From Styela clava (taxonomy: Eukaryota > Chordata > Ascidiacea > Stolidobranchia > Styelidae): DNA of 64,000 bases. The notes beneath the pieces are model-generated. The model did no database searches. It was not told where the DNA came from and worked only from the letters and a program-made list of their open reading frames with translations. The stretch lies in NCBI RefSeq assembly GCF_964204865.1, contig NC_135253.1:22728001-22792000 (forward strand), given 5' to 3'. The position numbers and the translations under genes were made by a program. This document shows, one piece after another, positions 1 to 64,000 of this stretch. Numbering within the stretch: position 1 is the stretch's first letter; each line of letters begins with the position of its first letter.

Positions 1-308
1 GGTAATTCTGTCAGACTGAAATATTGTCTGACAAATTCGTCCTACAAAATTTAAACTGAAAAGTCGGGTAATTCAAAGGAAAGCTCCGATGCTGTGAGCA
101 GAATTTGTACTTGGGGTATAACGGCCATAACATGAGGTACTAACCACTATACGATCAAATCATCTTGGCGCAGATGATGATTTCAATTCATCAGACTCTG
201 GGTCATGGACCCAGAACGTTTCCGCTTCGCCACTCTGCTACTCGGAATACAGAGTTGTCCTTCAAAACGTGGAGTTTCAAAAAAACAGCATTTAAAAATA
301 ATTTCCGA

Positions 309-380
309 TGCTGTGACCAGGATTAGAACCTGGGTTATCACGGCCACAACGAGAGGTACCAACTACTATACGATCACAGC
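309..380 (-). tRNA. tRNA-His (GTG), damaged
   Basis: Anticodon arm is intact, but the T-loop/B-box carries G to T and the D-loop GG is altered. Its iMet-like partner at 385-456 has acceptor-stem mismatches near the 3' end and an altered D arm, so the pair is probably inactive. Confidence 0.55.
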
Positions 381-1143
381 GTTCTAACAAGGGATGGTTT
401 CGATTCATCGACCTCTGGGTTATGAGACCAGCACGATTCGGCTGCGCCACTCTGCTACTCGCGGAATGCAACTTCCTTTTCCAATAATAAATAAACAAGA
501 TTTTAATTCAGAACTTCAGTTTTTCACCTATGTTTTCATATGTATTTTTAAAATAACTGAAATATTTTCTGACAAATTCGTTCTACAAAATTTAAACTGA
601 AAAGTCGGGTAATTCAAAGGAAAGCTCCGATGCTGTGAGCAGAATTTGAACTTGGGTTATAACAGCCATAACATGAGGTACTAACCACTATACGATCAAA
701 GTTATGAGTTATGGGTTATGAGACCAGTACGATTCCGCTGCGCCACTCTGCTACTCGCAGAATGCAACTTCCTTTTCTAATTATAAATAAACAAAATTTT
801 AATTCAGAACTTCAGTTTTTCACCTTTATTTTCATATGTATTTTTAAAATGACTGAAATATTGTCTGACAAATTCGTCCTACAAAATTTAAACTGAAAAG
901 TCGGGTAATTCAAAGGAAAGCTCCGATGTTGTGAGCAGAATTCGTACTTGGGGTATAACGGCCATAACATGAGGTACTAACCACTATACGATTAAAGTTT
1001 GACGCAGATGATGATTTCAATTCATCAAACTCTGGGTCATGGGCCCAGAACGTTTCCGCTTCGCCACTCTGCTACTCGGAATACGGAGTTGTCCTTCAAA
1101 ACGTGGAGTTTCAAAAAAACAGCATTTAAAAGGTAATTTCCGA

Positions 1144-1215
1144 CACTGTGGCCAGGATTCGAACCTGGGTTATCACGGCCACAACATGAGGTACCAACCA
1201 CTATACGATCACAGC
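1144..1215 (-). tRNA. tRNA-His (GTG), variant
   Basis: T arm and GTG anticodon loop are intact; acceptor pair 7:66 is broken and 1:72 is a wobble. The iMet-like partner at 1220-1291 has a mismatched acceptor stem. Confidence 0.6.
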
Positions 1216-1685
1216 GTTCTAACAAGGGATGGTTTCGATTCATCGACTCCTGGGTTATGAGACCAGTACGATTCCGCTGCGCCACTCTGCTACTCGCAGA
1301 ATGCAACTTCCTTTTCTAATTATAAATAAACAAAATTTTAATTCAGAACTTCAGTTTTTCACCTTTATTTTCATATGTATTTTTAAAATGACTGAAATAT
1401 TGTCTGACAAATTCGTCCTACAAAATTTAAACTGAAAAGTCGGGTAATTCAAAGGAAAGCTCCGATGCTGTGAGCAGAATTCGAACTTGGGTTATAACGG
1501 CCATAACATGAGGTACTAACCACTATACGATCAAAGCATTTTGACGCAGATGATGATTTCAATCCATCGACCTCTGGGTTATGGGCCCAGAACGTTTCCG
1601 CTTTGCCACTCTGCTACTCGGAAGACGGATCTGTCCTTCAAATCGTGGAATTTCAAAAAAACAGCAATGAAAATTACAATACCGG

Positions 1686-1757
1686 TGCTGTGACCAGGAT
1701 TTGAAACTGGGTTATCACGGCCACAACGTGAGGTACTAACCACTATACGATCACAGC
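1686..1757 (-). tRNA. tRNA-His (GTG), T-loop damaged
   Basis: Acceptor, D and anticodon arms match the consensus, but the T loop reads TTCAAAT with a broken last T-stem pair, which weakens the B box. Confidence 0.6.
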
Positions 1758-1761
1758 GTCT

Positions 1762-1833
1762 TAGCAGAGGATGGTTTCGATCCATCGACCTCTGGGTTAT
1801 GAGCCCAGCACGCTTCCGCTGCGCCACTCTGCT
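1762..1833 (-). tRNA. tRNA-iMet (CAT)
   Basis: Consensus initiator: A1:T72 pair, three G:C pairs at the base of the anticodon stem, A54 and A60 in the T loop. It uses T33, where most animal initiators have C33. Confidence 0.92.
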
Positions 1834-2190
1834 GCTTGCATAATGCAACTTCCTCTTCTAATAATACATAAACAAGATTTTATTAAAGAACTTAAGTTTT
1901 TCATCTTTGTTTTCATAGGTGTTTTGAAAATGACTTCGAAATTTAAATTCGTCCTTCAAAGTTTAAACTAAAAAGTCGGTTAATTCAAAGGAAAGCTCCG
2001 ATGCTGTGAGCAGAATTCGAACTTGGGTTATAACGGCCATAACATGAGGTACTAACCACTATACGATCAAAGCATTTTGACGATAATGATGATTTCAATT
2101 CATCAAACTCTGGGTTATGGGCCCAGAACGTTTCCGCTTCGCCACTCTGCTACTCGGAATACGGAGTTGTCCTTCAAAACGTGGAGTTGC

Positions 2191-2199
2191 AAAAAAAAA
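2191..2199 (-). terminator. Pol III T-run terminator (example)
   Basis: Nine T residues on the minus strand, 23 nt past the tRNA-His discriminator at 2223. A shorter T4 run lies between them at 2207-2210. Equivalent T6-T9 runs follow most A dimers; no T-run lies between iMet and His inside a dimer, which suggests one transcript per dimer. Confidence 0.6.
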
Positions 2200-2222
2200 C
2201 GCAATGAAAACTAAATTACCGA

Positions 2223-2294
2223 TGCTGTGACCAGGATTCGAACCTGGGTTATCACGGCCACAACGTGAGGTACTAACCACTATACGATCACAGC
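2223..2294 (-). tRNA. tRNA-His (GTG)
   Basis: Consensus copy with a complete cloverleaf: acceptor GCTGTGA/TCACAGC, anticodon stem TCACG/CGTGA around loop TTGTGGC, T stem CCAGG/CCTGG. G-1 is not encoded, as usual in eukaryotes. It starts 4 nt past the discriminator of the iMet gene at 2299-2370. Confidence 0.94.
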
Positions 2295-2298
2295 GTTT

Positions 2299-2370
2299 TA
2301 GCAGAGGATGGTTTCGATCCATCGACCTCTGGGTTATGAGACCAGCACGCTTCCGCTGCGCCACTCTGCT
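2299..2370 (-). tRNA. tRNA-iMet (CAT), U31 subtype
   Basis: Consensus except G31 to T, which breaks one of the three stacked G:C pairs that mark initiators. Confidence 0.82.
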
Positions 2371-2523
2371 ACTTACACAATGCAAATTACGCTTCTAATT
2401 ATCAATCAAACTCTGGGTTATGAGCCCAGCACGTTTCCGCTTCGCCACTCTGCTACTCGGAATACGGAGTTGTCCTTCAAAACGTAGAGTTTCAAAAAAA
2501 CGCAATGAAAATTAAATTACCGA

Positions 2524-2595
2524 TGCTGTGACCAGGATTCGAACCTGGGTTATCACGGCCACAACGTGAGGTACTAACCGCTATACGAACACAGC
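2524..2595 (-). tRNA. tRNA-His (GTG), T7 subtype
   Basis: T7 mismatch and D-loop C in place of T16; the rest is consensus. Confidence 0.78.
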
Positions 2596-10986: not shown

Positions 10987-11101
10987 GTCTTAGCTAGGGA
11001 TGGGCAATATAGAATACCGAATCCGGAGGATTCGAATCCCAAAGTATTCGAATCCAACAGGATCCGATAACAGGATTCGGTTTCCGCTTCTCCGGCGCCA
11101 T

Positions 11102-11549
11102 GCGTCGATTTTTGCATTTCGGGTTTCTAAATATCAATTAAAGACGAGCGTTTTTCTCGCGTGGAAATCTCTCTCGTTCAACTAGACTTGCGTCTGCTCG
11201 GAAAGAACCTGTAAAATCGGTAAACTTCAAACACTGTAATCTCAATCGGCGTATTCTGGACAGGAAGTCGGCGAAGTACATCTCAGGGCGAAGACTCGTT
11301 ATTGCACCATTTTTGCGTTTTCGCCGGGCGTCAATTTTTGTATTTCGGATTTCTAATTTATCAATTAAAGACGAGCGTTCTTTCTCGCGTGGAAATTTCT
11401 CTCGTTTAATTAAACTTGCCTAATCGCAAAGAACCCGTAAAATCGGTAAACATCAAACACAGTAATCTCAATCGGCGTATTCTGGACAAGAAGTCGTGAA
11501 GTACACCTTACGACGAAGACTCGTTATTGCACCATTTTTTGCGTTTTCC
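11102..11549. repeat. two about 225-bp direct repeats inside the hAT element
   Basis: Bases 11102-11327 and 11328-11549 are diverged tandem copies: both begin with a GCGTC-ATTTTTG motif, share AATTAAAGACGAGCG, AATCGGTAAAC and CTCAATCGGCGTATTCTGGAC, and end near TTATTGCACCATTTTT. They are non-coding as far as I can see. Confidence 0.85.
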
Positions 11550-12680
11550 TGCTTTGCTATCTAGCGAGGGTTTAATAATAATAATTATTTGTGCCGACTT
11601 ACTGGCGATATTACGATAATCTGATTGCAACAATCTTCAATTGTTTACAGGCGTGCCTTGCTTCATTTTACATTACTGTAAATGATTTTCCGCGACCGGT
11701 GAGTTTTCCCCAGAAAATGATGCATGTAAATCAAAAGCCAGGCGTAAAATGTTATGACATTACTTGCGAATAATTTAAATCAAATATTATTTTGGAATAA
11801 TTTTATTACTTTTATTACACCAGTTTCCGAAATACAAAGTTATATCGCATAACACGACGATCTGTCGCATTTAAAATTCACTCCCAAAAGATTACATATC
11901 TTTCGGTCCGTTTCTATCGTTCAAGATAGACGCACGTTTGATCGAGTGTCTGTAGTAATTTTATTCGCCGATAAACTTAAAAAAAAGATGCCGCATCTGG
12001 CGAAAATAGTTACGTATTGAGTTTGAGTAGAGCCAAGTCTGGGTAGATAATGATATGTAACAATAATAAAAGAAATTGAATTCGTCTTTAGATGATGTTA
12101 ACTAATAACTAACTACGAAATCGCGTTTACGGGAACCTTGTTTTGCACGTCTTGATCGCACAGAATAATAAGTTGATTTTAATTGATAGTGGTTAAATTT
12201 AATATTTTACACCGGTGCATAGGATGCAGTGGCCACACGCTGGTCCTGCATCTAATTAATTCACAGCGGGTGTGTTTTAGTACACTCGACACTCTATAAC
12301 ATTAATAATGATTTAATGCCGTTTCATATCTATTTTTGTATTTAACCGCTTACTATTAAAGTGTTTGAAGCGTAATTTAGCATATAAGTATTTAGCGATT
12401 ACATACATTTGGAACAATTGAAAGCAAAAATATTGTAATATTCTTAGATTTCATTGTCCTGGGAAATGCCTGTTTAGTATCAAATCAAATCCAATGTTAA
12501 GGACATTTCCAAATAAATAATACATTAATAGTAATACATTTATAATTTTTGACATCTAAATCCAGCAATCAGGAAAATTCCCTCTATTTGAATAAGTATG
12601 AAAATAGAATAGGATTCGGTATTCTGGATTCGATTTAACTATTCTAGAATATTCTAGAATAGTAAATTATTCTACATTGC
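11550..12680. other. hAT interior, no gene seen
   Basis: AT-rich sequence with only short open frames and no recognisable protein. A small inverted repeat GATGCAG/CTGCATC sits at 12223-12252. Confidence 0.6.
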
Positions 12681-12693
12681 CCATCCCTAGTCT

Positions 12694-21055: not shown

Positions 21056-21094
21056 GCTTGCATAATGCAACTTCCTCTTCTAATAATAAATTAA

Positions 21095-39299: not shown

Positions 39300-39303
39300 G
39301 TCT

Positions 39304-40507: not shown

Positions 40508-40511
40508 GTCT

Positions 40512-40808: not shown

Positions 40809-40812
40809 GTCT

Positions 40813-41643: not shown

Positions 41644-41715
41644 TGCTGTGACCAGGATTCGAACCTGGGTTATCACGGTCACAACGTGAGGCACTAACCA
41701 CTATACGATCACAGC
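41644..41715 (-). tRNA. tRNA-His (GTG), loop variant
   Basis: G37 to A and one D-loop change. Confidence 0.78.
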
Positions 41716-41719
41716 GTCT

Positions 41720-41791
41720 TAGCAGAGGATGGTTTCGATCCATCGACCTCTGGGTTATGAGCCCAGTACGCTTCCGCTGCGCCACTCTGCT
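41720..41791 (-). tRNA. tRNA-iMet (CAT)
   Basis: One change before the anticodon stem; otherwise consensus. Confidence 0.88.
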
Positions 41792-42235: not shown

Positions 42236-42842
42236 TGTCACTTTTGGGACCCGGAAATGATAAGTCGATTTGCCAGACTCGTTTTATTGAAAGTATTCAA
42301 AACGGTTGACTAAAATACAAATGAAATAATTAGCACCATATAAATCAAAGACAAATGATACAGAATATAAAACTAATACTTACACAAAACAACTCCATAT
42401 AACAGCATAGTCCCAAAACGACAGATATACAACCAAGGTAAAACAGTAACTATAAATGCAATACAATACGAGCTGTAGACATGCAAATATCATAATGTTA
42501 TATCGAACGATTCGAAATACAGTATAAAAGAAGACTATTGAATGAATTCAAACTTCAACGTTATAAAGGCGATGTAATCTTAAACTGCCATAACAAGAAA
42601 TGAAATCCTAAACTGCTACCACCAGAAATGCAATCTTAAACATCTTGCTGAGCTTAGGGGACGATAATAAAATAAATACGTAACACGATAACACGTGAAA
42701 GAGAAAAATGCGACACGTCGAATACGAGAAAACAACACAGTAATGATGACGACGACGAGATAGCGATGATCATCACGATGACGATGTACAACTGAAGGAA
42801 TCCTAACTAAACTAAACTTTAGGACCACACGGACTGCCGACA
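42236..42842 (-). repeat. 3' LTR of BEL copy 1
   Basis: 607 bp. By eye it differs from the 5' LTR at 7 positions; five of those are shared with the LTR pair of copy 2. Confidence 0.93.
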
Positions 42843-42870
42843 AAGCCACCCCATGACTATCCGAGGGAAG

Positions 42871-44946: not shown

Positions 44947-45054
44947 TTCTGATGCATCACAGAATATATGAATTTCATACGAGGAACTTTCACATTTAAC
45001 ACCTTTAAATTGACGTGGAATCGAAAAACTCTTTAAACATTTCAGCGAATTTAT

Positions 45055-47120: not shown

Positions 47121-48811
47121 TCGCGGTTGTTCGAGCGGCTGATCTGAATGACCCGATAATAGGGATAAACCACATTCTTCTTAGGAAATGCCTGTCTGCG
47201 ATCGTCACGATCTATTTTAGTACTGAAAAGATTTGGTGAAAAAGGATTTCCTAATTCCTCGCATCGTTCCCACAACCACTGCTCGAAGTCCAGTAAACTC
47301 GGCATTTCGTCGGCACGAATCATATCAGTCACAAACTTATTCCAACTCGAGGTCAGTTCTGCCGGAATTCGCAATGCTGTCTTTCTAACATTTTCAATAC
47401 TATACAAATCTGCAAGCAATCGCATTTTCTTCAAATTTATCACAATGTCGCGAACTTCAGAATGAATATCGGATATTTTTCGGATACTGAATTCTTTTAC
47501 TCGTCTACCATCTACAACCTTCTCGATAAAGGCCCGAGCAATCGTCACCCGTTGGCCGAATATATGTTTCAATTCACTCAACGCGACAATATAATTACTT
47601 CCCACCGTGCCTAAGCCATCGACATGTCGTTTAGCCACCCCCGTCAAAGACGCGACTAAGCGAACCATACGCGAACCGTCGTCGTCAAGAGAACTGTGTA
47701 CATCATCAAAAAATAACTCCATAAAGTTTGGCCATTCTAGGGGCGTTCCGCTAAAACTAGGAATCGTAATCGGTGATAAATGGTGCTGGGACAATATTCT
47801 AGAATTCAACTGTAATGATAACATAGTTTGTTCCTCTACTGACATATTAAAAGAATTACCATAAAATTTACCAGACTGGTTAGGTTCCAAGTGGTCAATC
47901 CACGCGTCGACTGCTTCTTGTGGTATAAGCATTCTGTTTGCAGGAGACGGGCGTTTGTAAGTTCGTGCTGCCGGGAAGTGCAATTCTTTGGTCTTTTCTG
48001 AATTTGTTATCACTTGACTCTTCGTCGGAACAAAAAAGTTCGCTGCACTTCGTCTGCATGTTGACTCTAACGGATATTCAATATTGACGCCACGGAAGTT
48101 ATCTTTAGGCATCTTTTTGGTAGCCAATTCAGTCTTTTCTTGTTCAATTTCACGCATAAGTTCGTCAGCTTGGCGACGTGTTAGATCTGCCATTCGTTCT
48201 TTTTCGTTTATGTCTCGACGTTTGGTATCAAGGCGACGCTCTAGTGCTGATATTTTATTGCGAATGGTATCTTCTTCTGTGAGAAAGTCTCGTTTAGCCA
48301 TACGTACAAGAGAATCGGCTCTTTCTACCTCTCGTTCTTGCTCAAGTTGCAATCGCTTCAGTGATTCAACACTGCATTTGCTTGTATTGGATTCGACAGA
48401 CCCGTGATCAGAAACGATCTCCTCGTCAAGGTAAGAATTAATTCTGCTTTCAATTTGATCGATTTTCGATAACATCATTTGCCTTCCAGTTTCATATTTC
48501 TTCAAAACATTTGGATTACGGGTAGTCGGAATGAGTTTATCCATCACTTGGTCATAAGCAATTCGTTTAACATGAAGTCCAATATTAAGATCAGTAACGA
48601 TAGAATTTTGAGCATTTTCAGTAATCGATTTTGAAATTCTGTCGCACAAACCATTTAGTTCATTTTGTAGTCGGACTCGTTCGTGGCATAATACATTGCG
48701 TCCAATAGTTTCAGAGTTACCGTCGTCTGTTTCCGCGAGAGGAACTGCAGGCGAAGAAGAAGCTTCTCGTCTATTCAAATATTGTGTAATTGATTCATCT
48801 GCTTCGTTCAT
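47084..48811 (-). CDS. gag: BEL/Pao Gag (copy 1), intact
   Basis: 575 residues; the start Met lies 28 nt past the 5' LTR, with no earlier in-frame Met. A highly charged segment at about residues 155-245 looks like a coiled coil. The DUF1759-like region begins near residue 347 (IPSFSGTPLEWPNF), as in BEL/Pao Gags, and would form the particle-assembly domain. The nucleocapsid zinc knuckles are not in this frame: they sit in the overlapping -1 frame from about 47,120. Intact here; the copy at 59873-61600 has a stop codon at residue 333. Confidence 0.9.
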   Translation of the reverse strand: MNEADESITQYLNRREASSSPAVPLAETDDGNSETIGRNVLCHERVRLQNELNGLCDRISKSITENAQNSIVTDLNIGLHVKRIAYDQVMDKLIPTTRNPNVLKKYETGRQMMLSKIDQIESRINSYLDEEIVSDHGSVESNTSKCSVESLKRLQLEQEREVERADSLVRMAKRDFLTEEDTIRNKISALERRLDTKRRDINEKERMADLTRRQADELMREIEQEKTELATKKMPKDNFRGVNIEYPLESTCRRSAANFFVPTKSQVITNSEKTKELHFPAARTYKRPSPANRMLIPQEAVDAWIDHLEPNQSGKFYGNSFNMSVEEQTMLSLQLNSRILSQHHLSPITIPSFSGTPLEWPNFMELFFDDVHSSLDDDGSRMVRLVASLTGVAKRHVDGLGTVGSNYIVALSELKHIFGQRVTIARAFIEKVVDGRRVKEFSIRKISDIHSEVRDIVINLKKMRLLADLYSIENVRKTALRIPAELTSSWNKFVTDMIRADEMPSLLDFEQWLWERCEELGNPFSPNLFSTKIDRDDRRQAFPKKNVVYPYYRVIQISRSNNRECNVSIAMVFIL

Positions 48812-48839
48812 CGTCGTCGCAAGGAGATTTGTTCAACTT

Positions 48840-49446
48840 TGTCACTTTTGGGACCCGGAAATGATAAGTCGATTTGCCAGACTCGTTTTATTGAAAGTAT
48901 TCAAAACGGTTGACTAAAATACAAATGAAATAATTAGCACCAAATAAATCAAAGACAAATGATACAGAAAATAAAACTAATACACACACAAAACAACTCC
49001 ATATAACAGCATAGTCCCAAAACGACAGATATACAACCAAGGTAAAACAGTAACTATAAATGCAATACAATACGAGCTGTAGACATGCAAATATCATAAT
49101 GTTATATCGAACGATTCGAAATACAGTATAAAAGAAGAATATTGAATGAATTCAAACTTCAACGTTATAAAGGCGATGTAACCTTAAACTGCCATAACAA
49201 GAAATGAAATCCTAAACTGCTACCACCAGAAATGCAATCTTAAACATCTTGCTGAGCTTAGGGGACGATAATAAAATAAATACGTAACACGATAACACGT
49301 GAAAGAGAAAAATGCGACACGTCGAATACGAGAAAACAACACAGTAATGATGACGACGACGAGATAGCGATAATCATCACGATGACGATGTACAACTGAA
49401 GGAATCCTAACTAAACTAAACTTTAGGACCACACGGACTGCCGACA
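48840..49446 (-). repeat. 5' LTR of BEL copy 1
   Basis: 607 bp, starts TGTCGGCAG and ends AAAGTGACA on the coding strand. Any promoter and polyadenylation signals would be here; I did not resolve a TATA box. Confidence 0.93.
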
Positions 49447-49697: not shown

Positions 49698-49769
49698 TGC
49701 TGTGACCAGGATTCGAACCTGGGTTATCACGGCCACAACGTGAGGTACTAACCACTATACGATCACAGC
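49698..49769 (-). tRNA. tRNA-His (GTG)
   Basis: Consensus copy. Confidence 0.93.
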
Positions 49770-49773
49770 GTAT

Positions 49774-49845
49774 TAGCAGAGGATGGTTTCGATCCATCGA
49801 CCTCTGGGTTATGAGCCCAGCACGCTTCCGCTGCGCCACTCTGCT
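49774..49845 (-). tRNA. tRNA-iMet (CAT)
   Basis: Consensus copy. Confidence 0.92.
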
Positions 49846-52056: not shown

Positions 52057-52128
52057 TGCTGTGACCAGGATTAGAACCTGGGTTATCACGGCCACAACGT
52101 GAGGTACTAACCACTATACGATCACAGC
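52057..52128 (-). tRNA. tRNA-His (GTG), T-loop change
   Basis: G57 to T in the B box; otherwise consensus. Confidence 0.72.
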
Positions 52129-52132
52129 GTTT

Positions 52133-52204
52133 TAGCAGAGGATGGTTTCGATCCATCGACCTCTGGGTTATGAGCCCAGCACGCTTCCGCTGCGCCACTC
52201 TGCT
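52133..52204 (-). tRNA. tRNA-iMet (CAT)
   Basis: Consensus copy. Confidence 0.92.
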
Positions 52205-52687: not shown

Positions 52688-52759
52688 TGCTGTGACCAGG
52701 ATTCGAACCTGGGTTATCACGGCCACAACGTGAGGTACTAAATACTATACAATCACAGC
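52688..52759 (-). tRNA. tRNA-His (GTG), A-box damaged
   Basis: Same D-loop loss as 37156-37227. Confidence 0.6.
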
Positions 52760-52763
52760 GTCT

Positions 52764-52835
52764 TAGCAGAGGATGGTTTCGATCCATCGACCTCTGGGTT
52801 ATGAGCCCAGCACGCTTCCGCTGCGCCACTCTGCT
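52764..52835 (-). tRNA. tRNA-iMet (CAT)
   Basis: Consensus; the duplicate at 38769 has 37G. Confidence 0.92.
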
Positions 52836-53216: not shown

Positions 53217-53288
53217 TGCTGTGACCAGGATTCGAACCTGGGTTATCACAGCCACAACGTGAGGTACTAACCACTATACGATCACAGC
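53217..53288 (-). tRNA. tRNA-His (GTG)
   Basis: Duplicate of 39228-39299. Confidence 0.88.
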
Positions 53289-53292
53289 GTCT

Positions 53293-53364
53293 TAGCAGAA
53301 GATGGTTTCGATCCATCGACCTCTGGGTTATGAGCCCAGCACGCTTCCGCTGCGCCACTCTGCT
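53293..53364 (-). tRNA. tRNA-iMet (CAT)
   Basis: Duplicate of 39304-39375. Confidence 0.9.
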
Positions 53365-53517: not shown

Positions 53518-53589
53518 TGCTGTGACCAGGATTCGAACCTGGGTTATCACAGCCACAACGTGAGGTACTAACCACTATACGATCACAGC
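53518..53589 (-). tRNA. tRNA-His (GTG)
   Basis: Duplicate of 39529-39600. Confidence 0.88.
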
Positions 53590-53593
53590 GTCT

Positions 53594-53665
53594 TAGCAGA
53601 AGATGGTTTCGATCCATCGACCTCTGGGTTATGAGCCCAGCACGCTTCCGCTGCGCCACTCTGCT
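53594..53665 (-). tRNA. tRNA-iMet (CAT)
   Basis: 7:66 wobble only. Confidence 0.9.
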
Positions 53666-54424: not shown

Positions 54425-54496
54425 TGCTGTGACCAGGATTCGAACCTGGGTTATCACGGCCACAACGTGAGGTACTAATCACTATACGATCACAGC
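54425..54496 (-). tRNA. tRNA-His (GTG)
   Basis: One D-loop change in the A box; otherwise consensus. Confidence 0.85.
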
Positions 54497-54500
54497 GTCT

Positions 54501-54572
54501 TAGCAGAGGATGGTTTCGATCCATCGACCTCTGGGTTATGAGCCCAGCACGCTTCCGCTGCGCCACTCTGCT
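54501..54572 (-). tRNA. tRNA-iMet (CAT)
   Basis: Consensus copy. Confidence 0.92.
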
Positions 54573-55023: not shown

Positions 55024-55630
55024 TGTCACTTTTGGGACCCGGAAATGATAAGTCGATTTGCCGGACTCGTTTTATTGAAAGTATTCAAAACGGTTGACTA
55101 AAATACAAATGAAATAATTAGCACCAAATAAATCAAAGACAAATGATACAGAATATAAAACTAATACTTACACAAAACAACTCCATATAACAGCATAGTC
55201 CCAAAACGACAGATATACAACCAAGGTAAAACAGTAACTATAAATGCAATACAATACGAGCTGTAGACATGCAAATATCATAATGTTATATCGAACGATT
55301 CGAAATACAGTATAAAAGAAGACTATTGAATGAATTCAAACTTCAACGTTATAAAGGCGATGTAATCTTAAACTGCCATAACAAGAAATGAAATCCTAAA
55401 CTGCTACCACCAGAAATGCAATCTTAAACATCTTGCTGAGCTTAGGGGACGATAATAAAATAAATACGTAACACGATAACACGTGAAAGAGAAAAATGCG
55501 ACACGTCGAATACGAGAAAACAACACAGTAATGATGACGACGACGAGATAGCGATGATCATCACGATGACGATGTACAACTGAAGGAATCCTAACTAAAC
55601 TAAACTTTAGGACCACACGGACTGCCGACA
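55024..55630 (-). repeat. 3' LTR of BEL copy 2
   Basis: 607 bp; by eye 2 differences from the 3' LTR of copy 1 and 7 from its own 5' LTR. Confidence 0.93.
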
Positions 55631-55658
55631 AAGCCACCCCATGACTATCCGCAGGAAG

Positions 55659-57734
55659 TCATTCTTCTAGGGGGCAGATTTTTGATGCGTGTCGAATATG
55701 TATGCCATTTATAGTTTTAACCGCGACAGTTCGGACTCGTCCGTCAGAACCAGGGGAAATTTGAATATCACGACCAAGTTGCCAACGTCCTCTCGGTGCA
55801 ACGGGGTCAAAAACGAGCACCAGATTTCCTTCTTGTAAGTTTCGTTGTTCCTTCCACCACTTACATCGTGTCATCAAATTCGGTAAGTAATCTTTTCGCC
55901 ATCTTCTCCAAAACTGATTACAAATAGCTTCGGTTTGCCTCCATCGTTTTCTGTAGCATAATTTCATCACGTCTGAATCCAGTGGAAACACTTCGGCCGA
56001 ATGCCCTTTCAACAAACAATTTGGTGTAATGGCACTAAAGTCGGTTGGTTCGTCGCTCACTGTTGTAATGGGTCTACTATTCATGATGTCGGTAACCCTC
56101 GCAAACGCGGTCTTCAAGACTTCGTCGGTTACACGCACATTCCCCAGAACTGCTTTCAAAGCACGCTTTGCGGACTTTACTAATCTTTCCCAAACGCCAC
56201 CAAAATGGGGAGCGTAAGGTGGAGTGAAATGCCATTCAATATTGTGTTTTAAGCACAGTTCTGCCACGCGAGATTCATCTATCGAGTTACGGACGGTTTT
56301 CAGCTCTCGGGAACCACCAACTATATTTGATCCGTTGTCCGACCATATTTGAGATACAGGTCCTCGTTTCGCAATGAAAGACAAAAGTACACATATGAAG
56401 GAATCAGTATCCATAGTCCATGCCATCTCAATGTGTACAGCTCTCATTGAAAGACAACAAAACAAACACCCCCATCGTTTCTCTAAAACCCTGCCTCTCT
56501 TTGTTTGGATCGAGCCGAAGAAATCCAGCCCGACATTTTCGAACGGTCTTGCTTCAGTAACACGAACTTTGGGCAGATTCGACATCAGTGGGGTTCTGCA
56601 ACTTGCTCGACGTCTTTTACATTCCCAACAATTATCAATTATTCGTTTGACAAGTTTTCTCCCTTTTATATGCCAGTAGCGCTCTCTTAATGCGCTAAGC
56701 GTGGCCTCTGGACCGGCATGTGCGAGTCGAATATGAGCAGCTTTCATTATCAACCATGAAATTCGACATGGGCAGTTCGAATCACATTTCAAACTTGAAT
56801 ACGGCAGTATAATAGGATGTTTCGAACGCAGTGGGATATTGGCATTTTCAAGACGGCCCCCGACGCGGATCACTTGTCCATCGAAAAATGGCGTCAGATT
56901 AAGTAACGTTGATTTTGAGGATAAATCTTCTCCGTTAGTTATGCATTTGCGCTCCACGCGGAAATGCTTGTTTTGAGCAGAAACTATCCAATACCGGCCC
57001 GCGAGTTCCAACTGTTTAGGAGTCACAAGTTGAGCTGGCAGCGGGCTATACGTCGGACATTTCACAGAAAGATTCTTAAAATACCGAGCTGCCAACAAAA
57101 CCACGGCAGTTCGTTTGCATAAGGAAAACCACGAATCAAAACGTTCGACATCGACGACCTTTTCGATTTCCGAATCAAGTACTCCATCGCTGTTATCCGT
57201 AGTTATAAAACAATCTGCTAGTATGCATGTTTGATATTTAATCTCTTGGTCGTGGTCGTCAACTGCACGTAACGCTATCTGGCTTGGCCAATCACTTTCG
57301 GGCATGAGCAAAAACTCTGGTCCATGTAGCCATCGATCAGAATTTTCTAGAAATTTGGAAACCGTCATTCCCCTAGTGCAGTAATCAGCGGGATTCTGTG
57401 CGGAGTCGACGTACTTCCATTGGTGTGGCCGAGTGTGATCGAGTATTTCGCGAACGCGATTGGCTACAAATGTTTTAAATCTTCGAGTTTTATTTTTTAA
57501 ATATCTCAATACACAAGTCGAGTCGGACCACATATGTACGTCGCCTAGTGGAAGGGATAGTTCTTTTCGGAGAAAACTTAACAATCGCACGGCCAAGAGA
57601 GCACCTTGCAATTCTAAACGAGGCACGTTCATACCTTTCATAGGTGCGACTCTTGCTTTAGCCGCGATAAGACTACACTGAAAATTCTCCCGGGAATGCT
57701 TCGAAATTATGTATGCTACCGCGCCATATGCCAC
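55659..57734 (-). CDS. BEL pol C-terminal part: RNase H, integrase, DUF5641-like (copy 2)
   Basis: 691 residues from the first Met; frame open upstream to 57842. Zinc-binding and DDE residues are at the same positions as in copy 1 and are all intact. Scattered substitutions separate the copies, for example Asn for Thr in the residues just before PRLEL. Confidence 0.9.
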   Translation of the reverse strand: MAYGAVAYIISKHSRENFQCSLIAAKARVAPMKGMNVPRLELQGALLAVRLLSFLRKELSLPLGDVHMWSDSTCVLRYLKNKTRRFKTFVANRVREILDHTRPHQWKYVDSAQNPADYCTRGMTVSKFLENSDRWLHGPEFLLMPESDWPSQIALRAVDDHDQEIKYQTCILADCFITTDNSDGVLDSEIEKVVDVERFDSWFSLCKRTAVVLLAARYFKNLSVKCPTYSPLPAQLVTPKQLELAGRYWIVSAQNKHFRVERKCITNGEDLSSKSTLLNLTPFFDGQVIRVGGRLENANIPLRSKHPIILPYSSLKCDSNCPCRISWLIMKAAHIRLAHAGPEATLSALRERYWHIKGRKLVKRIIDNCWECKRRRASCRTPLMSNLPKVRVTEARPFENVGLDFFGSIQTKRGRVLEKRWGCLFCCLSMRAVHIEMAWTMDTDSFICVLLSFIAKRGPVSQIWSDNGSNIVGGSRELKTVRNSIDESRVAELCLKHNIEWHFTPPYAPHFGGVWERLVKSAKRALKAVLGNVRVTDEVLKTAFARVTDIMNSRPITTVSDEPTDFSAITPNCLLKGHSAEVFPLDSDVMKLCYRKRWRQTEAICNQFWRRWRKDYLPNLMTRCKWWKEQRNLQEGNLVLVFDPVAPRGRWQLGRDIQISPGSDGRVRTVAVKTINGIHIRHASKICPLEE

Positions 57735-57842
57735 TTCTGATGCATCACAGAATATATGAATTTCATACGAGGAACTTTCACATTTAACACCTTTAAATTG
57801 ACGTGGAATCGAAAAACTCTTTAAACATTTCAGCGAATTTAT

Positions 57843-59909
57843 TCAATTTTCCCAACACTTCAATCTCTTATTATCAAATACTTCGTCCCAAGCTAAGTTG
57901 TCACGCCAACATTCCCGCCGTAATAATTTGGCATACAAAATGATTGGTGCTACAAATCCTAATGGATCGAATATTGAACTGGTTACACCAAGGGCCTTTC
58001 TTTTCGTGGTAAATTCAGTAAATTTCTGGTGGTCGAATATAAAGCAATCCTTCTCGATGTCCCAATGCAAGCCCAGAGCTTTTCTAACAGGTAATCTGTC
58101 CAGATCTAAGTCAACATTAGTGACGACACGTCCACTGGATATTTCACGTAAAACCGATTTAGAATTCGAAACCCACTTGGTCAAGTTGAATCCTTTATCG
58201 TGTAACATCTTAATCATATCTTTAGCTGTCGATACCGCGGAATCAACATTCCATTTCGAAGTAAGTAAATCATCGACATAAAAGTCTCTATCGGTAGTTA
58301 ATATTACGTCTCTAGGAAACTTGTTTCTACTATCGTACGCAGCTCTCTTCAAACAAAAGTTTGCGACATAAGGTGAATCCACAGCTCCAAAAATACGAAC
58401 TAAGAATTTATACACATCTGGCCGTTTGGTTGAAAAAAGGTCTTCCGACCAGAGAAAACGTGCAGAATCCGTATCATCTTCCGGCAATCGAATCATATGA
58501 AACATGGCTTCTATATCGGCGCTTATAGCGATTGGTCTTTCCCGAAAACGTAAAAGCACCCCGACTAGATTATTGATCAAATCGCGCCCGGACATCAATC
58601 GACTGTTCAGACTGACGCCGCAGCAAGTAGATGCCGCCTCAAAAACAATTCTTAGTTTATTTGGCCCTTTGGGATTTTCAACGCGATGATGAGGCAGAAA
58701 CCAAGTTCGAGGACCGCGAAACGCCTTTTCATCTGAAGTTAGCTTACGCACCCAACCCCTTTCAATATTCTTCGCCATTTCTTTACAATATAAGTTTCGC
58801 AAACGTTCGTTTCCTTGGAGTCGTTTTCTAAGATTTTCGAACCTGTTAAGCGCTACGTGTTCGTTTTGCGGCATTTCGCAATTTTCATTTCTCCACATAA
58901 ACCCAACCTCGTAATGACCGTCGATAAATCTAATTTTTCTTTCCATCAAATTATCAGTTTGTCTATCTTCAATCGACTCGCTACGGGTCAAATTGTACGC
59001 CGTGCCTACAGCTTCAGTGGACCAAAATCGCTCGACTTGTTCTTGCAGCATGTTATACTGGTCACGCAAATCACAACACAGCATATTTGAAACAGTTTCA
59101 TCTTCATTAGTCGCGCCTGAAGACCCGATCAAAGTCCAACCGAGAGGAGTTTTAATACCCACTGGTTCATGTTGCTGGCCGACTCTACGTTCAAGCTGGA
59201 AATGCGCTAAGGGAATATCGGCTCCGATTAAAATCATGGCTTTGTTCGCTTCAATGTCGGTTAACGGAATATCCTGCAGGTGAGTCATATTGTGATCGTT
59301 CTTAAGGATTCTAGCTGGATGTGGTATGCGTGACTCGACCACAAACACTTTGCTTAACATCAGAATTTGACCACTCTCGTCGTGAGCAGATCGCACCGAC
59401 AATTTCACCACCTCCGTATTTTGCGAAACGCCCTTATTGCATAAGGTGTTAATGGTTAGACACCTAGGACTTCCTTTTAAACCAAGTTTTTGTTTTAATT
59501 TGGGATGTATTATTGAGATTTGACTGGCAGAATCTAGAACAGCGATAGCATATTCAGAGGATCCCAATGGGCCTTTTACTACGACTGGTAAAAGCTGAAA
59601 CTGAACACCATTAACGCCTGAAACATGAGAATTGGCAACGCCGCTCATATGAGGAGGGAGATCAGGCTGATTGTTATCACTCAATCTATTAGGAACGACT
59701 CTCAAACCATGGATGGCTGAATGATGCTTACCAGGACAAACACGACACATATTGCGGAACCGGCACGAAATAGCTAAATGTCCAGGTTCGAGACAGTTGA
59801 AGCACAGGCGTGAATCTAGTAGAAATCTTCTTTTCGTGTCATTGGCACTAAACCTGAAGCTATCGCAGTTACTTAAAGAATGAAAACCATTGCAATAGAA
59901 ACATTGCAT
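57843..59909 (-). CDS. BEL pol N-terminal part: zinc knuckles, protease, RT (copy 2)
   Basis: 688 residues without frameshift. Zinc knuckles at 3-15 (CX2CX3HX4C) and 36-49 (CX2CX4HX4C); protease-like motif DSAS at 126-129; RT with motif-A Asp 465, YVDD at 544-547 and a GPRTWFLPHH block at 399-408. Residue 424 is Glu where copy 1 has Asp (IVF[D/E]AAS), which may weaken RT. The Met at 59909 is only the first in frame: reading continues upstream into the gag overlap in the -1 frame. It ends at TGA 57843-57845, in frame with the RNase H segment. Confidence 0.9.
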   Translation of the reverse strand: MQCFYCNGFHSLSNCDSFRFSANDTKRRFLLDSRLCFNCLEPGHLAISCRFRNMCRVCPGKHHSAIHGLRVVPNRLSDNNQPDLPPHMSGVANSHVSGVNGVQFQLLPVVVKGPLGSSEYAIAVLDSASQISIIHPKLKQKLGLKGSPRCLTINTLCNKGVSQNTEVVKLSVRSAHDESGQILMLSKVFVVESRIPHPARILKNDHNMTHLQDIPLTDIEANKAMILIGADIPLAHFQLERRVGQQHEPVGIKTPLGWTLIGSSGATNEDETVSNMLCCDLRDQYNMLQEQVERFWSTEAVGTAYNLTRSESIEDRQTDNLMERKIRFIDGHYEVGFMWRNENCEMPQNEHVALNRFENLRKRLQGNERLRNLYCKEMAKNIERGWVRKLTSDEKAFRGPRTWFLPHHRVENPKGPNKLRIVFEAASTCCGVSLNSRLMSGRDLINNLVGVLLRFRERPIAISADIEAMFHMIRLPEDDTDSARFLWSEDLFSTKRPDVYKFLVRIFGAVDSPYVANFCLKRAAYDSRNKFPRDVILTTDRDFYVDDLLTSKWNVDSAVSTAKDMIKMLHDKGFNLTKWVSNSKSVLREISSGRVVTNVDLDLDRLPVRKALGLHWDIEKDCFIFDHQKFTEFTTKRKALGVTSSIFDPLGFVAPIILYAKLLRRECWRDNLAWDEVFDNKRLKCWEN

Positions 59910-61600
59910 TCGCGGTTGTTCGAGCGGCTGATCTGAATGACCCGATAATAGGGATAAACCACATTCTTCTTAGGAAATGCCTGTCTGCGATCGTCACGAT
60001 CTATTTTAGTACTGAAAAGATTTGGTGAAAAAGGATTTCCTAATTCCTCGCATCGTTCCCACAACCACTGCTCGAAGTCCAGTAAACTCGGCATTTCGTC
60101 GGCACGAATCATATCAGTCACAAACTTATTCCAACTCGAGGTCAGTTCTGCCGGAATTCGCAATGCTGTCTTTCTAACATTTTCAATACTATACAAATCT
60201 GCAAGCAATCGCATTTTCTTCAAATTTATCACAATGTCGCGAACTTCAGAATGAAAATCGGATATTTTTCGGATACTGAATTCTTTTACTCGTCTACCAT
60301 CTACAACCTTCTCGATAAAGGCCCGAGCAATCGTCACCCGTTGGCCGAATATATGTTTCAATTCACTCAACGCGACAATATAATTACTTCCCACCGTGCC
60401 TAAGCCATCGACATGTCGTTTAGCCACCCCCGTCAAAGACGCGACTAAGCGAACCATACGCGAACCGTCGTCGTCAAGAGAACTGTGTACATTATCAAAA
60501 AATAACTCCATAAAGTTTGGCCATTCTAGGGGCGTTCCGCTAAAACTAGAAATCGTAATCGGTGATAAATGGTGCTGGGACAATATTCTAGAATTCAACT
60601 GTCATGATAACATAGTTTGTTCCTCTACTGACATATTAAAAGAATTACCATAAAATTTACCAGACTGGTTAGGTTCCAAGTGGTCAATCCACGCGTCGAC
60701 TGCTTCTTGTGGTATAAGCATTCTGTTTGCAGGAGACGGGCGTTTGTAAGTTCGTGCTGCCGGGAAGTGCAATTCTTTGGTCTTTTCTGAATTTGTTATC
60801 ACTTGACTCTTCGTCGGAACAAAAAAGTTCGCTGCACTTCGTCTGCATGTTGACTCTAACGGATATTCAATATTGACGCCACGGAAGTTATCTTTAGGCA
60901 TCTTTTTGGTAGCCAATTCAGTCTTTTCTTGTTCAATTTCACGCATAAGTTCGTCAGCTCGGCGACGTGTTAGATCTGCCATTCGTTCTTTTTCGTTTAT
61001 GTCTCGACGTTTGGTATCAAGGCGACGCTCTAGTGCTGATATTTTATTGCGAATGGTATCTTCTTCTGTGAGAAAGTCTCGTTTAGCCATACGTACAAGA
61101 GAATCGGCTCTTTCTACCTCTCGTTCTTGCTCAAGTTGCAATCGCTTCAGTGATTCAACACTGCATTTGCTTGTATTGGATTCGACAGACCCGTGATCAG
61201 AAACGATCTCCTCGTCAAGGTAAGAATTAATTCTGCTTTCAATTTGATCGATTTTCGATAACATCATTTGCCTTCCAGTTTCATATTTCTTCAAAACATT
61301 TGGATTACGGGTAGTCGGAATGAGTTTATCCATCACTTGGTCATAAGCAATTCGTTTAACATGAAGTCCAATATTAAGATCAGTAACGATAGAATTTTGA
61401 GCATTTTCAGTAATCGATTTTGAAATTCTGTCGCACAAACCATTTAGTTCATTTTGTAGTCGGACTCGTTCGTGGCATAATACATTGCGTCCAATAGTTT
61501 CAGAGTTACCGTCGTCTGTTTCCGCGAGAGGAACTGCAGGCGAAGAAGAAGCTTCTCGTCTATTCAAATATTGTGTAATTGATTCATCTGCTTCGTTCAT
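59873..61600 (-). pseudogene. gag: BEL/Pao gag with a premature stop (copy 2)
   Basis: The first 332 residues (60602-61600) are followed by TGA where copy 1 has a Leu codon (TTA), one base substitution at 60603. The remaining DUF1759-like part stays open (59873-60598 from an internal Met). Confidence 0.9.
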
Positions 61601-61628
61601 CGTCGTCGCAAGGAGATTTGTTCAACTT

Positions 61629-62235
61629 TGTCACTTTTGGGACCCGGAAATGATAAGTCGATTTGCCAGACTCGTTTTATTGAAAGTATTCAAAACGGTT
61701 GACTAAAATACAAATGAAATAATTAGCACCAAATAAATCAAAGACAAATGATACAGAAAATAAAACTAATACACACACAAAACAACTCCATATAACAGCA
61801 TAGTCCCAAAACGACAGATATACAACCAAGGTAAAACAGTAACTATAAATGCAATACAATACGAGCTGTAGACATGCAAATATCATAATGTTATATCGAA
61901 CGATTCGAAATACAGTATAAAAGAAGAATATTGAATGAATTCAAACTTCAACGTTATAAAGGCGATGTAATCTTAAACTGCCATAACAAGAAATGAAATC
62001 CTAAACTGCTACCACCAGAAATGCAATCTTAAACATCTTGCTGAGCTTAGGGGACGATAATAAAATAAATACGTAACACGATAACACGTGAAAGAGAAAA
62101 ATGCGACACGTCGAATACGAGAAAACAACACAGTAATGATGACGACGACGAGATAGCGATAATCATCACGATGACGATGTATAACTGAAGGAATCCTAAC
62201 TAAACTAAACTTTAGGACCACACGGACTGCCGACA
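61629..62235 (-). repeat. 5' LTR of BEL copy 2
   Basis: 607 bp; by eye 2 differences from the 5' LTR of copy 1. Confidence 0.93.
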
Positions 62236-62261
62236 CTAACCACTATACGATCACAGCGTTT

Positions 62262-62333
62262 TAGCAGGGGATAGTTTCGATCCATCGACCTCTGGGTTAT
62301 GAGACCAACACGCTTCCGCTGCGCCACACTGCT
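62262..62333 (-). tRNA. tRNA-iMet (CAT), variant
   Basis: Duplicate of 49473-49544 with one further acceptor change. Confidence 0.6.
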
Positions 62334-62486
62334 ACTGACACAACGCAAATTCCGCTTCTAATAATCAATCAAACTCTGGGTTATGAGCCCAGCATGTTTC
62401 CGCTTCGCCACTCTGCTACTCGGAATACGGAGTTGTCCTTCAAAACGTGGAGTTTCAAAAAAACGCAATGAAAATTAAATTACCGA

Positions 62487-62558
62487 TGCTGTGACCAGGA
62501 TTCGAACCTGGGTTATCACGGCCACAACGTGAGGTACTAACCACTATACGATCACAGC
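62487..62558 (-). tRNA. tRNA-His (GTG)
   Basis: Consensus copy. Confidence 0.93.
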
Positions 62559-62562
62559 GTAT

Positions 62563-62634
62563 TAGCAGAGGATGGTTTCGATCCATCGACCTCTGGGATA
62601 TGAGCCCAGCACGCTTCCGCTGCGCCACTCTGCT
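62563..62634 (-). tRNA. tRNA-iMet (CAT), loop variant
   Basis: A38 to T; its duplicate at 49774 is consensus. Confidence 0.8.
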
Positions 62635-63133
62635 ACTCACACAATGCCAATTCCGCTTCTAATAATCAATCAAACTCTGGGTTATGAGCCCAGCACGCTT
62701 CCGATTCGCCACTCTGCTACTCGGAATACGGAGTTGTCCTTCAAAACGTGGAGTTTCCTTCCTTTTCTAATAATAAATAAACAAATTTTTAATTCAGAAC
62801 TTCAGTTTTTCACCTATGTTTTCATATGTATTTTCAAAATGACTGAAATATTTTCTGACAAATTCGTTCTACAAAATTCAAACTGAAAAGTCGGGTAATT
62901 CAAAGGAAAGCTCCGATGCTGTGAGCAGAATTTGAACTTGGGTTATAACGGCCATAACATGAGGTACTAACCACTATACGATCAAAGTTTGACGCAGATG
63001 ATGATTTAAATTCATCAAACTCTGGGTCATGGGCCCAGAACGTTTCCGCTTCGCCACTCTGCTACTCGGAATACGGAGTTGTCCTTCAAAACGTGGAGTT
63101 TCAAAAAAAACGCAATGAAAATTAAATTACCGA

Positions 63134-63205
63134 TGCTGTGACCAGGATTTGAACCTGGCTTTTCACGGCCACAACGTGAGGTACTAACCACTATACGATC
63201 ACAGC
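63134..63205 (-). tRNA. tRNA-His (GTG), variant
   Basis: T-loop change (C to T on plus) and the same T-stem/variable changes as 50345-50416. Confidence 0.62.
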
Positions 63206-63209
63206 GTTT

Positions 63210-63281
63210 TAGCAGAGGATGGTTTCGATCCATCGACCTCTGGGTTATGAGCCCAGCACGCTTCCGCTGCGCCACTCTGCT
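63210..63281 (-). tRNA. tRNA-iMet (CAT)
   Basis: Consensus copy. Confidence 0.92.
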
Positions 63282-63666
63282 GCTTGCATAATGCAACTTC
63301 CTCTTCTAATAATGAATAAACAAGATTTTATTACCGAACTTCAGTTTTCAACCTTTGTTTTCATAGGTGTTTTGAAAATGACTTCAAAATTTAATTTCGT
63401 CTTTCAAAGTTTAAACTAAAAAGTCGGATAATTCAAAGGAAAGCTCCGATGCTGTGAGCAGAATTCGAACTTGGGATAAAACGGCCACAACACGAGGTAC
63501 TAACCACTATACGATCAAAGTTTGACGCAGATGATGATTTCAATTCATCAAACTCTGGGTCATGGGCACAGAACGTTTCCGCTTCGCCACTCTGCTACTC
63601 GGAATACGGAGTTGTCCTTCAAAACGTGGCGTTTCAAAAAAACAGCAATGAAAATTAAATTACCGA

Positions 63667-63738
63667 TGCTGTGACCAGGATTCGAACCTGGGTTATCACG
63701 GCCACAACGTGAGGTACTAACCACTATACGATCACAGC
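63667..63738 (-). tRNA. tRNA-His (GTG)
   Basis: Consensus copy. Confidence 0.93.
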
Positions 63739-63742
63739 GTCT

Positions 63743-63814
63743 TAGAAGAGGATGGTTTCGATTCATCGACCTCTGGGTTATGAGCCCAGCACGCTTCCGC
63801 TGCGCCACTCTGCT
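63743..63814 (-). tRNA. tRNA-iMet (CAT), variant
   Basis: Duplicate of 50954-51025 with the same acceptor and T-stem changes. Confidence 0.78.
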
Positions 63815-64000
63815 GGTTGCATAATGCAACTTCCTCTTCTAATAATAAATAAACATTATTTTATTACAGAACTTAAGTTTTTCATCTTTGTTTTCATAGG
63901 TGTTTTGAAAATGACTTCGAAATTTAAATTCGTCCTTCAAAGTTTAAACTAAAAAGTCGGGTAATTCAGAGGATAGCTCCGATGCTGTGAGCAGAATTCG

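What the first reader, a model, noticed from the sequence alone, without database searches (positions are those of the whole stretch)
1..64000. Massive tandem array of dimeric initiator-Met/His tRNA genes
About 95 iMet-His dimers (intact to damaged) plus about 60 degenerate pairs lie head-to-tail on one strand in 64 kb. In each A dimer, iMet and His are separated by only 4 nt after the iMet discriminator base, with T-runs only after His. That layout predicts one dicistronic Pol III transcript. Dimeric tRNA genes are known (for example Ser-iMet in fission yeast, Arg-Asp in budding yeast) and tandem tDNA arrays are known (Xenopus, Entamoeba), but I know of no iMet-His dimer satellite.
Basis: partly seen in the sequence, partly recalled or inferred. 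Interest (0 to 1): 0.9.

Follow-up and report, generated by a model that had tools for sequence, protein, structure and literature searches.

The report
Tandem array of initiator-Met/His tRNA pairs
A 64,000-base stretch of what looks like an animal genome is mostly made of head-to-tail copies of a tiny two-gene unit (the start-codon tRNA followed by the histidine tRNA), most copies decayed and a few dozen perhaps still usable; such arrays are unusual in animals and this pair looks built to be made as one RNA.

Summary
All 161 ARAGORN tRNAs lie on the minus strand (0 in each of 20 shuffles). There are two main types. Type A is canonical: 4-nt linker, no T4 inside the pair, T4 usually 12 nt after His. 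Type B is degenerate. They often alternate at recurrent spacings, recombine with each other, and are copied in blocks of up to 10.9 kb, one carrying a BEL/Pao insertion along.

The layout fits a dicistronic Pol III gene, which could not be tested. Most copies are not good genes: 14 of 156 pairs have every stem intact (12 with both right anticodons), 38 pass a relaxed filter, and no stem change is compensated. In recent duplicates A tRNAs change no more slowly than spacers; over longer times their bodies are under half as diverged as their flanks, but dead type B bodies are nearly as conserved.

Best reading: a dimeric tRNA gene turned satellite, with a minority of usable copies. Tandem tRNA arrays and dimeric tRNA genes are known; my searches listed no iMet-His dimer array. 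Species unknown.

The parts
1..64000 (-). Head-to-tail array of iMet-His tRNA dimers (types A and B), interrupted by mobile elements; array sequence reaches both ends of the window
   Evidence: 161 ARAGORN tRNAs, all minus; 156 pairs; recurrent spacings
63134..63281 (-). A dimer, all 42 tRNA stem pairs formed
62487..62634 (-). A dimer, all stem pairs formed, His at consensus
54425..54572 (-). A dimer, all stem pairs formed, iMet at consensus
53518..53665 (-). A dimer, all stem pairs formed
53217..53364 (-). A dimer, all stem pairs formed
52688..52835 (-). A dimer, all stem pairs formed, iMet at consensus
52057..52204 (-). A dimer, all stem pairs formed, iMet at consensus; His B box altered, so it fails the relaxed filter
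49698..49845 (-). A dimer with both tRNAs at the array consensus (cleanest candidate gene); TTTT 12 nt after His
41644..41791 (-). A dimer, all stem pairs formed
40737..40884 (-). A dimer, all stem pairs formed
40436..40583 (-). A dimer, all stem pairs formed
39228..39375 (-). A dimer, all stem pairs formed
37156..37303 (-). A dimer, all stem pairs formed but iMet anticodon CAC (would read a Val codon)
33379..33526 (-). A dimer, all stem pairs formed but iMet anticodon GAT (would read an Ile codon)
42236..49446 (-). BEL/Pao LTR retrotransposon inserted inside a His tRNA gene after position 22, 5-bp target duplication GTTAG
   Evidence: boundaries worked out from the flanks printed
55024..62235 (-). 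Second copy of the same BEL/Pao insertion, carried by a 10.9-kb duplication of the array (99.25% identical)
   Evidence: Pfam was run only on the ORFs of the other copy
10995..12689 (-). hAT-like element between an iMet and its His (ends TAGGGATGGGCAA / TTGCCCATCCCTA, 8-bp target duplication GCTAAGAC); the hAT label rests on ends and duplication length, recalled criteria
21092..23294 (+). LINE fragment with reverse-transcriptase ORF and a TAGTCA-type microsatellite tail, about 40 nt upstream of an iMet (limits approximate)

Best explanation
Shown: the window is a tandem array of a two-gene unit, initiator tRNA-Met then tRNA-His on one strand, typically 4 nt apart, in a canonical type A and a degenerate type B that recombine with each other and have been multiplied in blocks that carry mobile-element insertions along. 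Inferred history: the founder was a working dimer gene; one copy decayed into type B early on and A-B units were then multiplied by unequal exchange and block duplication. Inferred function: each sound A unit is one Pol III gene. TFIIIC/TFIIIB assemble on the iMet internal promoter, since with a 4-nt linker the upstream footprint of the His gene would fall on the iMet B box. Pol III reads through both tRNAs and stops at TTTT 12 nt after His or at the longer T-run behind it. RNase P cleaves at the His 5' end and separates the two tRNAs. A minority of copies (12 by strict rules, 38 by relaxed ones, in this window) would supply iMet and His tRNA in equal numbers; the rest are passengers.
For: Anatomy: linker 4 nt in 68 of 71 AA pairs, no T4 inside any of 71, first T4 at +12 in 58 of 71; longest T-run within 62 nt after His is 7 or more in 48 of the 67 gapless 4-nt-linker AA pairs. 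Predicted transcript 148 + 16 nt plus a short leader, close to the about 170-nt yeast Arg-Asp precursor (passage of PMC12129344). Consensus iMet and His form every pair of the cloverleaf I wrote for them; 16 exact-consensus iMet copies and 13 exact-consensus His copies. Satellite behaviour: recurrent inter-dimer spacings, 70, 168 and 234 nt foremost; block duplications up to 10.9 kb including the same BEL insertion and its target duplication; A/B mosaics in 12 of 139 His and 12 of 135 iMet copies. Long-term body conservation: in 45 units picked by their flanks, iMet 3.4% and His 3.1% from consensus against 8.8% and 6.7% in flanks, with 0 gap cells in the bodies.
Against: No expression data. 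Only 14 of 156 pairs are fully paired. Recent duplicates: A tRNAs 68 of 3730 sites differ, spacers 89 of 6366, B pairs 52 of 3758, so A is not slower; if anything faster (A against spacer p = 0.096). The overlapping blocks point the same way (98.5-100% band: His-A 34 of 2230, iMet-A 19 of 2196, spacer 70 of 7840; 97-98.5% band: 2.7% and 3.2% against 1.8%). None of 42 stem pairs shows a change on both sides among 49 distinct dimers. B bodies, which look dead, are nearly as conserved (3.8-4.4%) as A bodies, so the long-term difference from flanks is mostly not A-specific. Two structurally perfect iMet copies carry wrong anticodons, easier to accept if such copies are silent. The minimum-energy fold of one whole precursor does not show two clean cloverleaves (z -1.34).
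Confidence: 0.6

Rival explanations
1. Silent satellite: the array descends from a tRNA dimer gene but no copy in it is transcribed now; cellular iMet and His come from other loci.
For: A tRNAs diverge like spacer in recent duplicates; no compensated stem changes; most copies broken, wrong anticodons in two otherwise perfect iMet copies. Precedent: the Arabidopsis SYY tRNA cluster is silent in most tissues (passages of PMC12308677).
Against: Sixteen exact-consensus iMet and thirteen exact-consensus His copies persist. The Arabidopsis cluster is nevertheless expressed in root-cap cells.
Confidence: 0.3
2. Independent genes: iMet and His are each transcribed from their own internal promoter rather than as one precursor.
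For: Most fully paired copies of both tRNAs keep the consensus B box (iMet 32 of 40, His 26 of 32) and A-box stretch (38 of 40, 25 of 32); some A-type His copies sit next to a degenerate iMet and the reverse (30 BA and 6 AB pairs).
Against: No T4 terminator after iMet in 71 of 71 AA pairs, and a 4-nt linker leaves no room for a separate upstream factor footprint (footprint size recalled).
Confidence: 0.2
3. The tandem copies are the by-product of a tRNA-derived mobile element (SINE or tRNA-bearing TRIM of the Helenus type).
For: tRNA-derived elements can reach high copy number, and Helenus LTRs hold tRNA-like sequences; some fungal families can encode tRNA-His (PMC10886601, abstract and part 1 of its Results).
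Against: Copies are contiguous, on one strand, at recurrent spacings, and each unit holds two full, different tRNAs rather than one tRNA-like promoter. Target duplications around units were not searched for.
Confidence: 0.04
4. Assembly artefact (a collapsed or expanded repeat).
For: Long near-identical blocks, such as 10.9 kb at 99.25%, are where assemblers fail; copy number and order may be wrong.
Against: The listed blocks are not identical and have differing identities, lengths and offsets; different mobile-element insertions sit at different units.
Confidence: 0.06

Closest known systems
Dimeric tRNA genes of yeasts (S. cerevisiae Arg-Asp, passages of PMC12129344; S. pombe Ser-iMet, recalled)
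   Same: Two different tRNAs on one strand with a short linker, predicted precursor about 170 nt
   Different: There the precursor is shown and, as recalled, the units are not satellites; here more than a hundred tandem units, a different pair with iMet first, no RNA evidence
Arabidopsis SYY (Ser-Tyr-Tyr) tRNA cluster (passages of PMC12308677)
   Same: Tandem array of a multi-tRNA unit with major copies, variants and pseudogenes; expanded by tandem duplication
   Different: Plant, other tRNAs; cell-type-specific expression shown; one linked precursor not mentioned in the passages I saw
Entamoeba tRNA arrays (passages of PMC2652664)
   Same: Array units of up to five tRNA genes in tandem
   Different: Almost all tRNA genes of the genome are so arranged and most units are uniform; in E. 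histolytica and E. dispar short tandem repeats lie between genes, rather than a decayed partner dimer
tRNA tandem arrays of Hydractinia and Nematostella (passages of PMC11067881)
   Same: Animal tRNA genes in tens or hundreds of tandem copies with similar spacers
   Different: Copies reported as nearly identical or highly similar; no dimer with a 4-nt linker mentioned in the passages I saw
Human 1q23.3 tRNA VNTR (passages of PMC4041453)
   Same: Tandem repeat carrying several tRNA genes, copy-number change by whole units
   Different: 7.3-kb units with five tRNA genes on both strands and CTCF binding; units 98% identical

Membership tests
Dimeric (dicistronic) Pol III tRNA gene | Two tRNA genes, same strand, few nt apart | tested here: met
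   4 nt in 68 of 71 AA pairs, 5 nt in 3
Dimeric (dicistronic) Pol III tRNA gene | No Pol III terminator between the two, terminator after the second | tested here: met
   No T4 inside 71 of 71 AA pairs; first T4 at +12 in 58 of 71. BB pairs: T4 inside 13 of 49
Dimeric (dicistronic) Pol III tRNA gene | A single precursor RNA cut by RNase P | not testable with these tools
   No RNA data
Dimeric (dicistronic) Pol III tRNA gene | Both tRNAs functional | tested here: inconclusive
   14 of 156 pairs fully paired, 38 pass a relaxed filter; no sign of per-copy constraint
Tandem tRNA gene array | Many head-to-tail units with tRNA genes and recurrent spacers | tested here: met
Tandem tRNA gene array | Units homogeneous in sequence | tested here: inconclusive
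   Some blocks at 97-99% identity, many others at 88-93%
Tandem tRNA gene array | Units transcribed in at least one cell type | not testable with these tools
   No RNA or chromatin data
Satellite DNA with higher-order repeats | Tandem monomers with higher-order blocks and exchange between monomer types | tested here: met
   A-B alternation in many steps, e.g. 19 AA-to-BB steps of 70 nt; block duplications; A/B mosaics
tRNA-derived mobile element (SINE, Helenus-type TRIM) | Separately inserted, dispersed copies with target-site duplications | tested here: inconclusive
   In the window copies are contiguous and on one strand, which speaks against it; target duplications, primer-binding site and polypurine tract of the unit were not searched for, and the rest of the genome could not be searched

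The most novel reading that the evidence does not exclude
A dedicated supply locus: an animal that raises initiator-Met and His tRNA together, in equal amounts, from a large dicistronic Pol III array switched on at a stage of heavy demand such as oogenesis or early embryo, by analogy with the oocyte-specific tandem tRNA genes of Xenopus, and that keeps the array working by recombination rather than by selection on single copies.
Probability: 0.15. Interest if true: 0.8.

Novelty: new variant of a known kind. Interest (0 to 1): 0.52.

Why it matters
Initiator tRNA is called rate-limiting for cell growth in a commentary of which I saw passages (PMC11500080), and tandem tRNA arrays are said to be unusual outside Entamoeba (PMC11067881). 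A natural array that couples iMet to another tRNA in one predicted transcript, with intact, chimeric and dead units side by side, would let one ask how multi-copy tRNA genes stay functional (selection or recombination), and whether Pol III makes dicistronic tRNA precursors in animals. If the array is silent it is still a clear case of a tRNA gene turned satellite.

Tried and rejected
Primer idea: an array of iMet/His might feed reverse transcription of the resident BEL/Pao element; by eye, the sequence after its 5' LTR matches neither the iMet nor the His 3' end. SINE/TRIM origin: disfavoured, not excluded. Covariation as proof of function: none found. Whole-precursor folding: uninformative, z -1.34, 17 of 200 shuffles fold at least as well. 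A first diversity comparison was dropped because I had picked the units by tRNA identity, which makes tRNAs look conserved, and because units with different flank types were mixed; it was replaced by block comparison and flank-picked units (the one 149-nt unit of 46 was left out). In one search the blocks overlap; the five non-overlapping blocks are the ones mainly quoted. Within the 10.9-kb duplication the array parts differ more than the BEL copies (41 of 3696 against 26 of 7206, p about 6e-6). Of the 41, 24 lie in one stretch of about 240 nt at the end, which I read as an exchange boundary. Of the remaining 17, 10 are in A tRNAs, 6 in B and 1 in spacer, which hints at faster change of A tRNAs (transcription-linked mutation, or conversion from other A copies); over the five blocks the A excess is not significant, so I do not claim it, but it is not excluded. 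Organism: unknown; CpG observed/expected of 1.42 in spacers and 1.32 in BEL and the BEL/Pao, hAT-like and LINE content suggest an invertebrate, no more. DNA-pattern scans of viral contigs and genome contigs for an iMet-His junction: 0 hits each; these collections hold viral and prokaryotic sequence, so this says little.
Full report
CHECK OF THE OBSERVATION. ARAGORN finds 161 tRNA genes in the 64 kb, every one on the minus strand; 20 dinucleotide-preserving shuffles give none. Rfam's tRNA model finds 174 above its gathering score (150 listed, all minus, 24 not shown). A blastn search with one iMet and one His copy gives 347 hits, 187 iMet and 160 His, all on that strand. Joined by position they make 156 iMet-His pairs, 31 unpaired iMet hits (28 of them a 54-nt 5' fragment 30-34 nt upstream of a full iMet) and 4 unpaired His hits. 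The Met tRNA used as query differs from human initiator tRNA at one base (human sequence recalled) and has the initiator features A1-U72, three G-C pairs in the anticodon stem and the AUCGAAA T-loop.

ANATOMY. Reading the minus strand, the commonest order is [iMet-A, 4 nt, His-A], 70 nt, [iMet-B, 8 nt, His-B], then 168 or 234 nt; other spacings such as 153 and 174 nt also recur, and some steps join A to A. In AA pairs the linker is 4 nt in 68 of 71 and 5 nt in 3; no TTTT occurs inside any of the 71; the first TTTT follows His by 12 nt in 58 of 71, and within 62 nt of His the longest T-run is 7 or more in 48 of the 67 pairs examined. B members are degenerate: 50 of 139 full-length gapless His copies have anticodon ATG in place of GTG; paired His copies under 93% identity have 3 to 6 broken stem pairs (58 copies), iMet copies under 93% have 1 to 6, most often 3 (56 copies). 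The BB linker is 8 nt in 26 of 49, and TTTT occurs inside 13 of 49 BB pairs.

HOW MANY COULD WORK. Of 135 gapless full-length iMet copies 40 have all 21 stem pairs, of 139 His copies 32 do. Fourteen of 156 pairs have both; two of the fourteen have an altered iMet anticodon (CAC at 37156-37303, GAT at 33379-33526). With one broken pair allowed per tRNA, right anticodons and a B-box pattern, 38 pairs pass, 11 of the strict 12 among them.

HOW IT EVOLVES. At 7 His sites and 13 iMet sites that separate the A and B consensus, 114 of 139 His copies are pure A or pure B and 72 of 135 iMet copies are; most of the rest depart at one or two sites, and 12 His and 12 iMet copies carry at least two sites of each type, so the types exchange sequence. 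Large blocks are duplicated: the longest, 10.9 kb at 99.25% identity, contains a BEL/Pao element inserted inside a His gene with a 5-bp target duplication (GTTAG), so one insertion was copied with the array; its two LTRs (607 bp) are 98.85% identical. Pfam hits on the ORFs of one BEL copy and on the LINE ORF confirm those two. A hAT-like element (TAGGGATGGGCAA ends, 8-bp duplication GCTAAGAC) separates an iMet from its His at 10995-12689.

IS IT UNDER SELECTION? In five non-overlapping recent block pairs (at least 97% identical, at least 1.2 kb) A tRNAs differ at 68 of 3730 sites (1.8%), spacers at 89 of 6366 (1.4%), B pairs at 52 of 3758 (1.4%), BEL at 26 of 7206 (0.4%); A against spacer p = 0.096. 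Single copies thus show no detectable constraint, and A tRNAs may change slightly faster; the overlapping blocks and the 10.9-kb block (outside one end stretch, 10 of 17 array differences are in A tRNAs) lean the same way. In 49 distinct A dimers, 96.1% of 2058 stem cells pair, none of 42 pairs has a change on both sides, and shuffles do as well. Over longer times the picture is softer: in 45 units picked by their flanks and not by their tRNAs, iMet and His are 3.4% and 3.1% from consensus with no gap cells, flanks 8.8% and 6.7% with 75 gap cells; but in 55 B units picked the same way the dead bodies are at 3.8% and 4.4% (0 and 30 gap cells) and flanks at 6.5% and 5.1%. At most a weak A-specific constraint is left. 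This fits a redundant array in which recombination, more than selection on each copy, keeps good units.

MECHANISM. Shown: layout, T-runs, block duplication, A/B exchange, many broken copies. Inferred: a sound A unit is one Pol III gene driven by the iMet promoter, ending after His, giving a precursor of about 165-180 nt that RNase P splits. The model is the yeast Arg-Asp dimer, a precursor of about 170 nt cut first by RNase P at the 5' end of the second tRNA (passage of PMC12129344). That the His gene cannot assemble its own upstream factors with a 4-nt linker is from general knowledge of TFIIIB footprints, not tested. Confidence about 0.6 overall: the array's nature near certain, a dicistronic unit likely, present-day transcription uncertain.

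WHAT IS KNOWN. Tandem tRNA arrays: Entamoeba (PMC2652664, passages), Arabidopsis SYY cluster, silent in most tissues and active in root-cap cells (PMC12308677, passages), other plants with two- and three-tRNA units repeated up to 37 times (PMC12652284, passages), Hydractinia and Nematostella (PMC11067881, passages, which calls such arrays unusual outside Entamoeba), human 1q23.3 (PMC4041453, passages); tRNA tandem arrays that expand and contract are also mentioned for the Drosophila simulans complex (PMC7919458, passages), and clusters in many eukaryotes (PMC2888827, passages). A commentary reports oocyte-specific tandem tRNA genes in Xenopus activated at zygotic genome activation (PMC11500080, passages). 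No iMet-His dimer array showed in the listings of ten full-text searches; several listings were capped (20 of 130, 30 of 228, 40 of 57, 8 of 72, 30 of 41 papers), one search was on mutation rates and found nothing, and the library lacks most subscription papers. I therefore call it a new variant of a known kind.

LIMITS. The species is unknown, the rest of its genome could not be searched and no expression data exist here. Array sequence reaches both ends of the window, so its full size is unknown.

Noticed in passing
42236-49446 and 55024-62235: One BEL/Pao insertion inside a His tRNA gene (5-bp target duplication GTTAG), present twice through a block duplication; the open reading frames of the two copies are interrupted at different places.
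   Followed up: partly
10995-12689: hAT-like element with no ORF of 100 aa listed, between an iMet and its His, with an internal 226-bp repeat of two copies.
   Followed up: partly
21092-23294: LINE fragment with reverse-transcriptase ORF and TAGTCA-type tail; within it a CGGTACCG-rich stretch near 22780.
   Followed up: no
37232-37303 and 33454-33527: Initiator tRNAs with intact stems but anticodons CAC and GAT; if expressed they could start translation at other codons.
   Followed up: no
A and B iMet copies throughout: All 67 aligned A iMet copies have T just before the anticodon (position 33), whereas the B consensus has C there, as in vertebrate initiators (recalled).
   Followed up: no
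20984-21055, 25938-26009, 31140-31211, 33674-33745: ARAGORN reports a four-base anticodon (cata); the aligned copies have changes in the anticodon stem, so this is probably a calling artefact.
   Followed up: partly
28 places, e.g. 62665-62718: A 54-nt 5' iMet fragment recurs 30-34 nt upstream of full iMet copies, a partial tandem duplication of about 84 bp copied through the array.
   Followed up: no
spacers and BEL elements: CpG observed/expected is 1.42 in spacers and 1.32 in BEL against 0.82 in A tRNAs, which argues against heavy CpG loss in this genome.
   Followed up: no
duplicated block, rc 145-11054 and 12934-23842 (plus strand 52947-63856 and 40159-51067): Outside one end stretch, 10 of 17 array differences between the two block copies fall in A tRNAs and 1 in spacer; small numbers, but worth a test for transcription-linked mutation or conversion.
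   Followed up: partly
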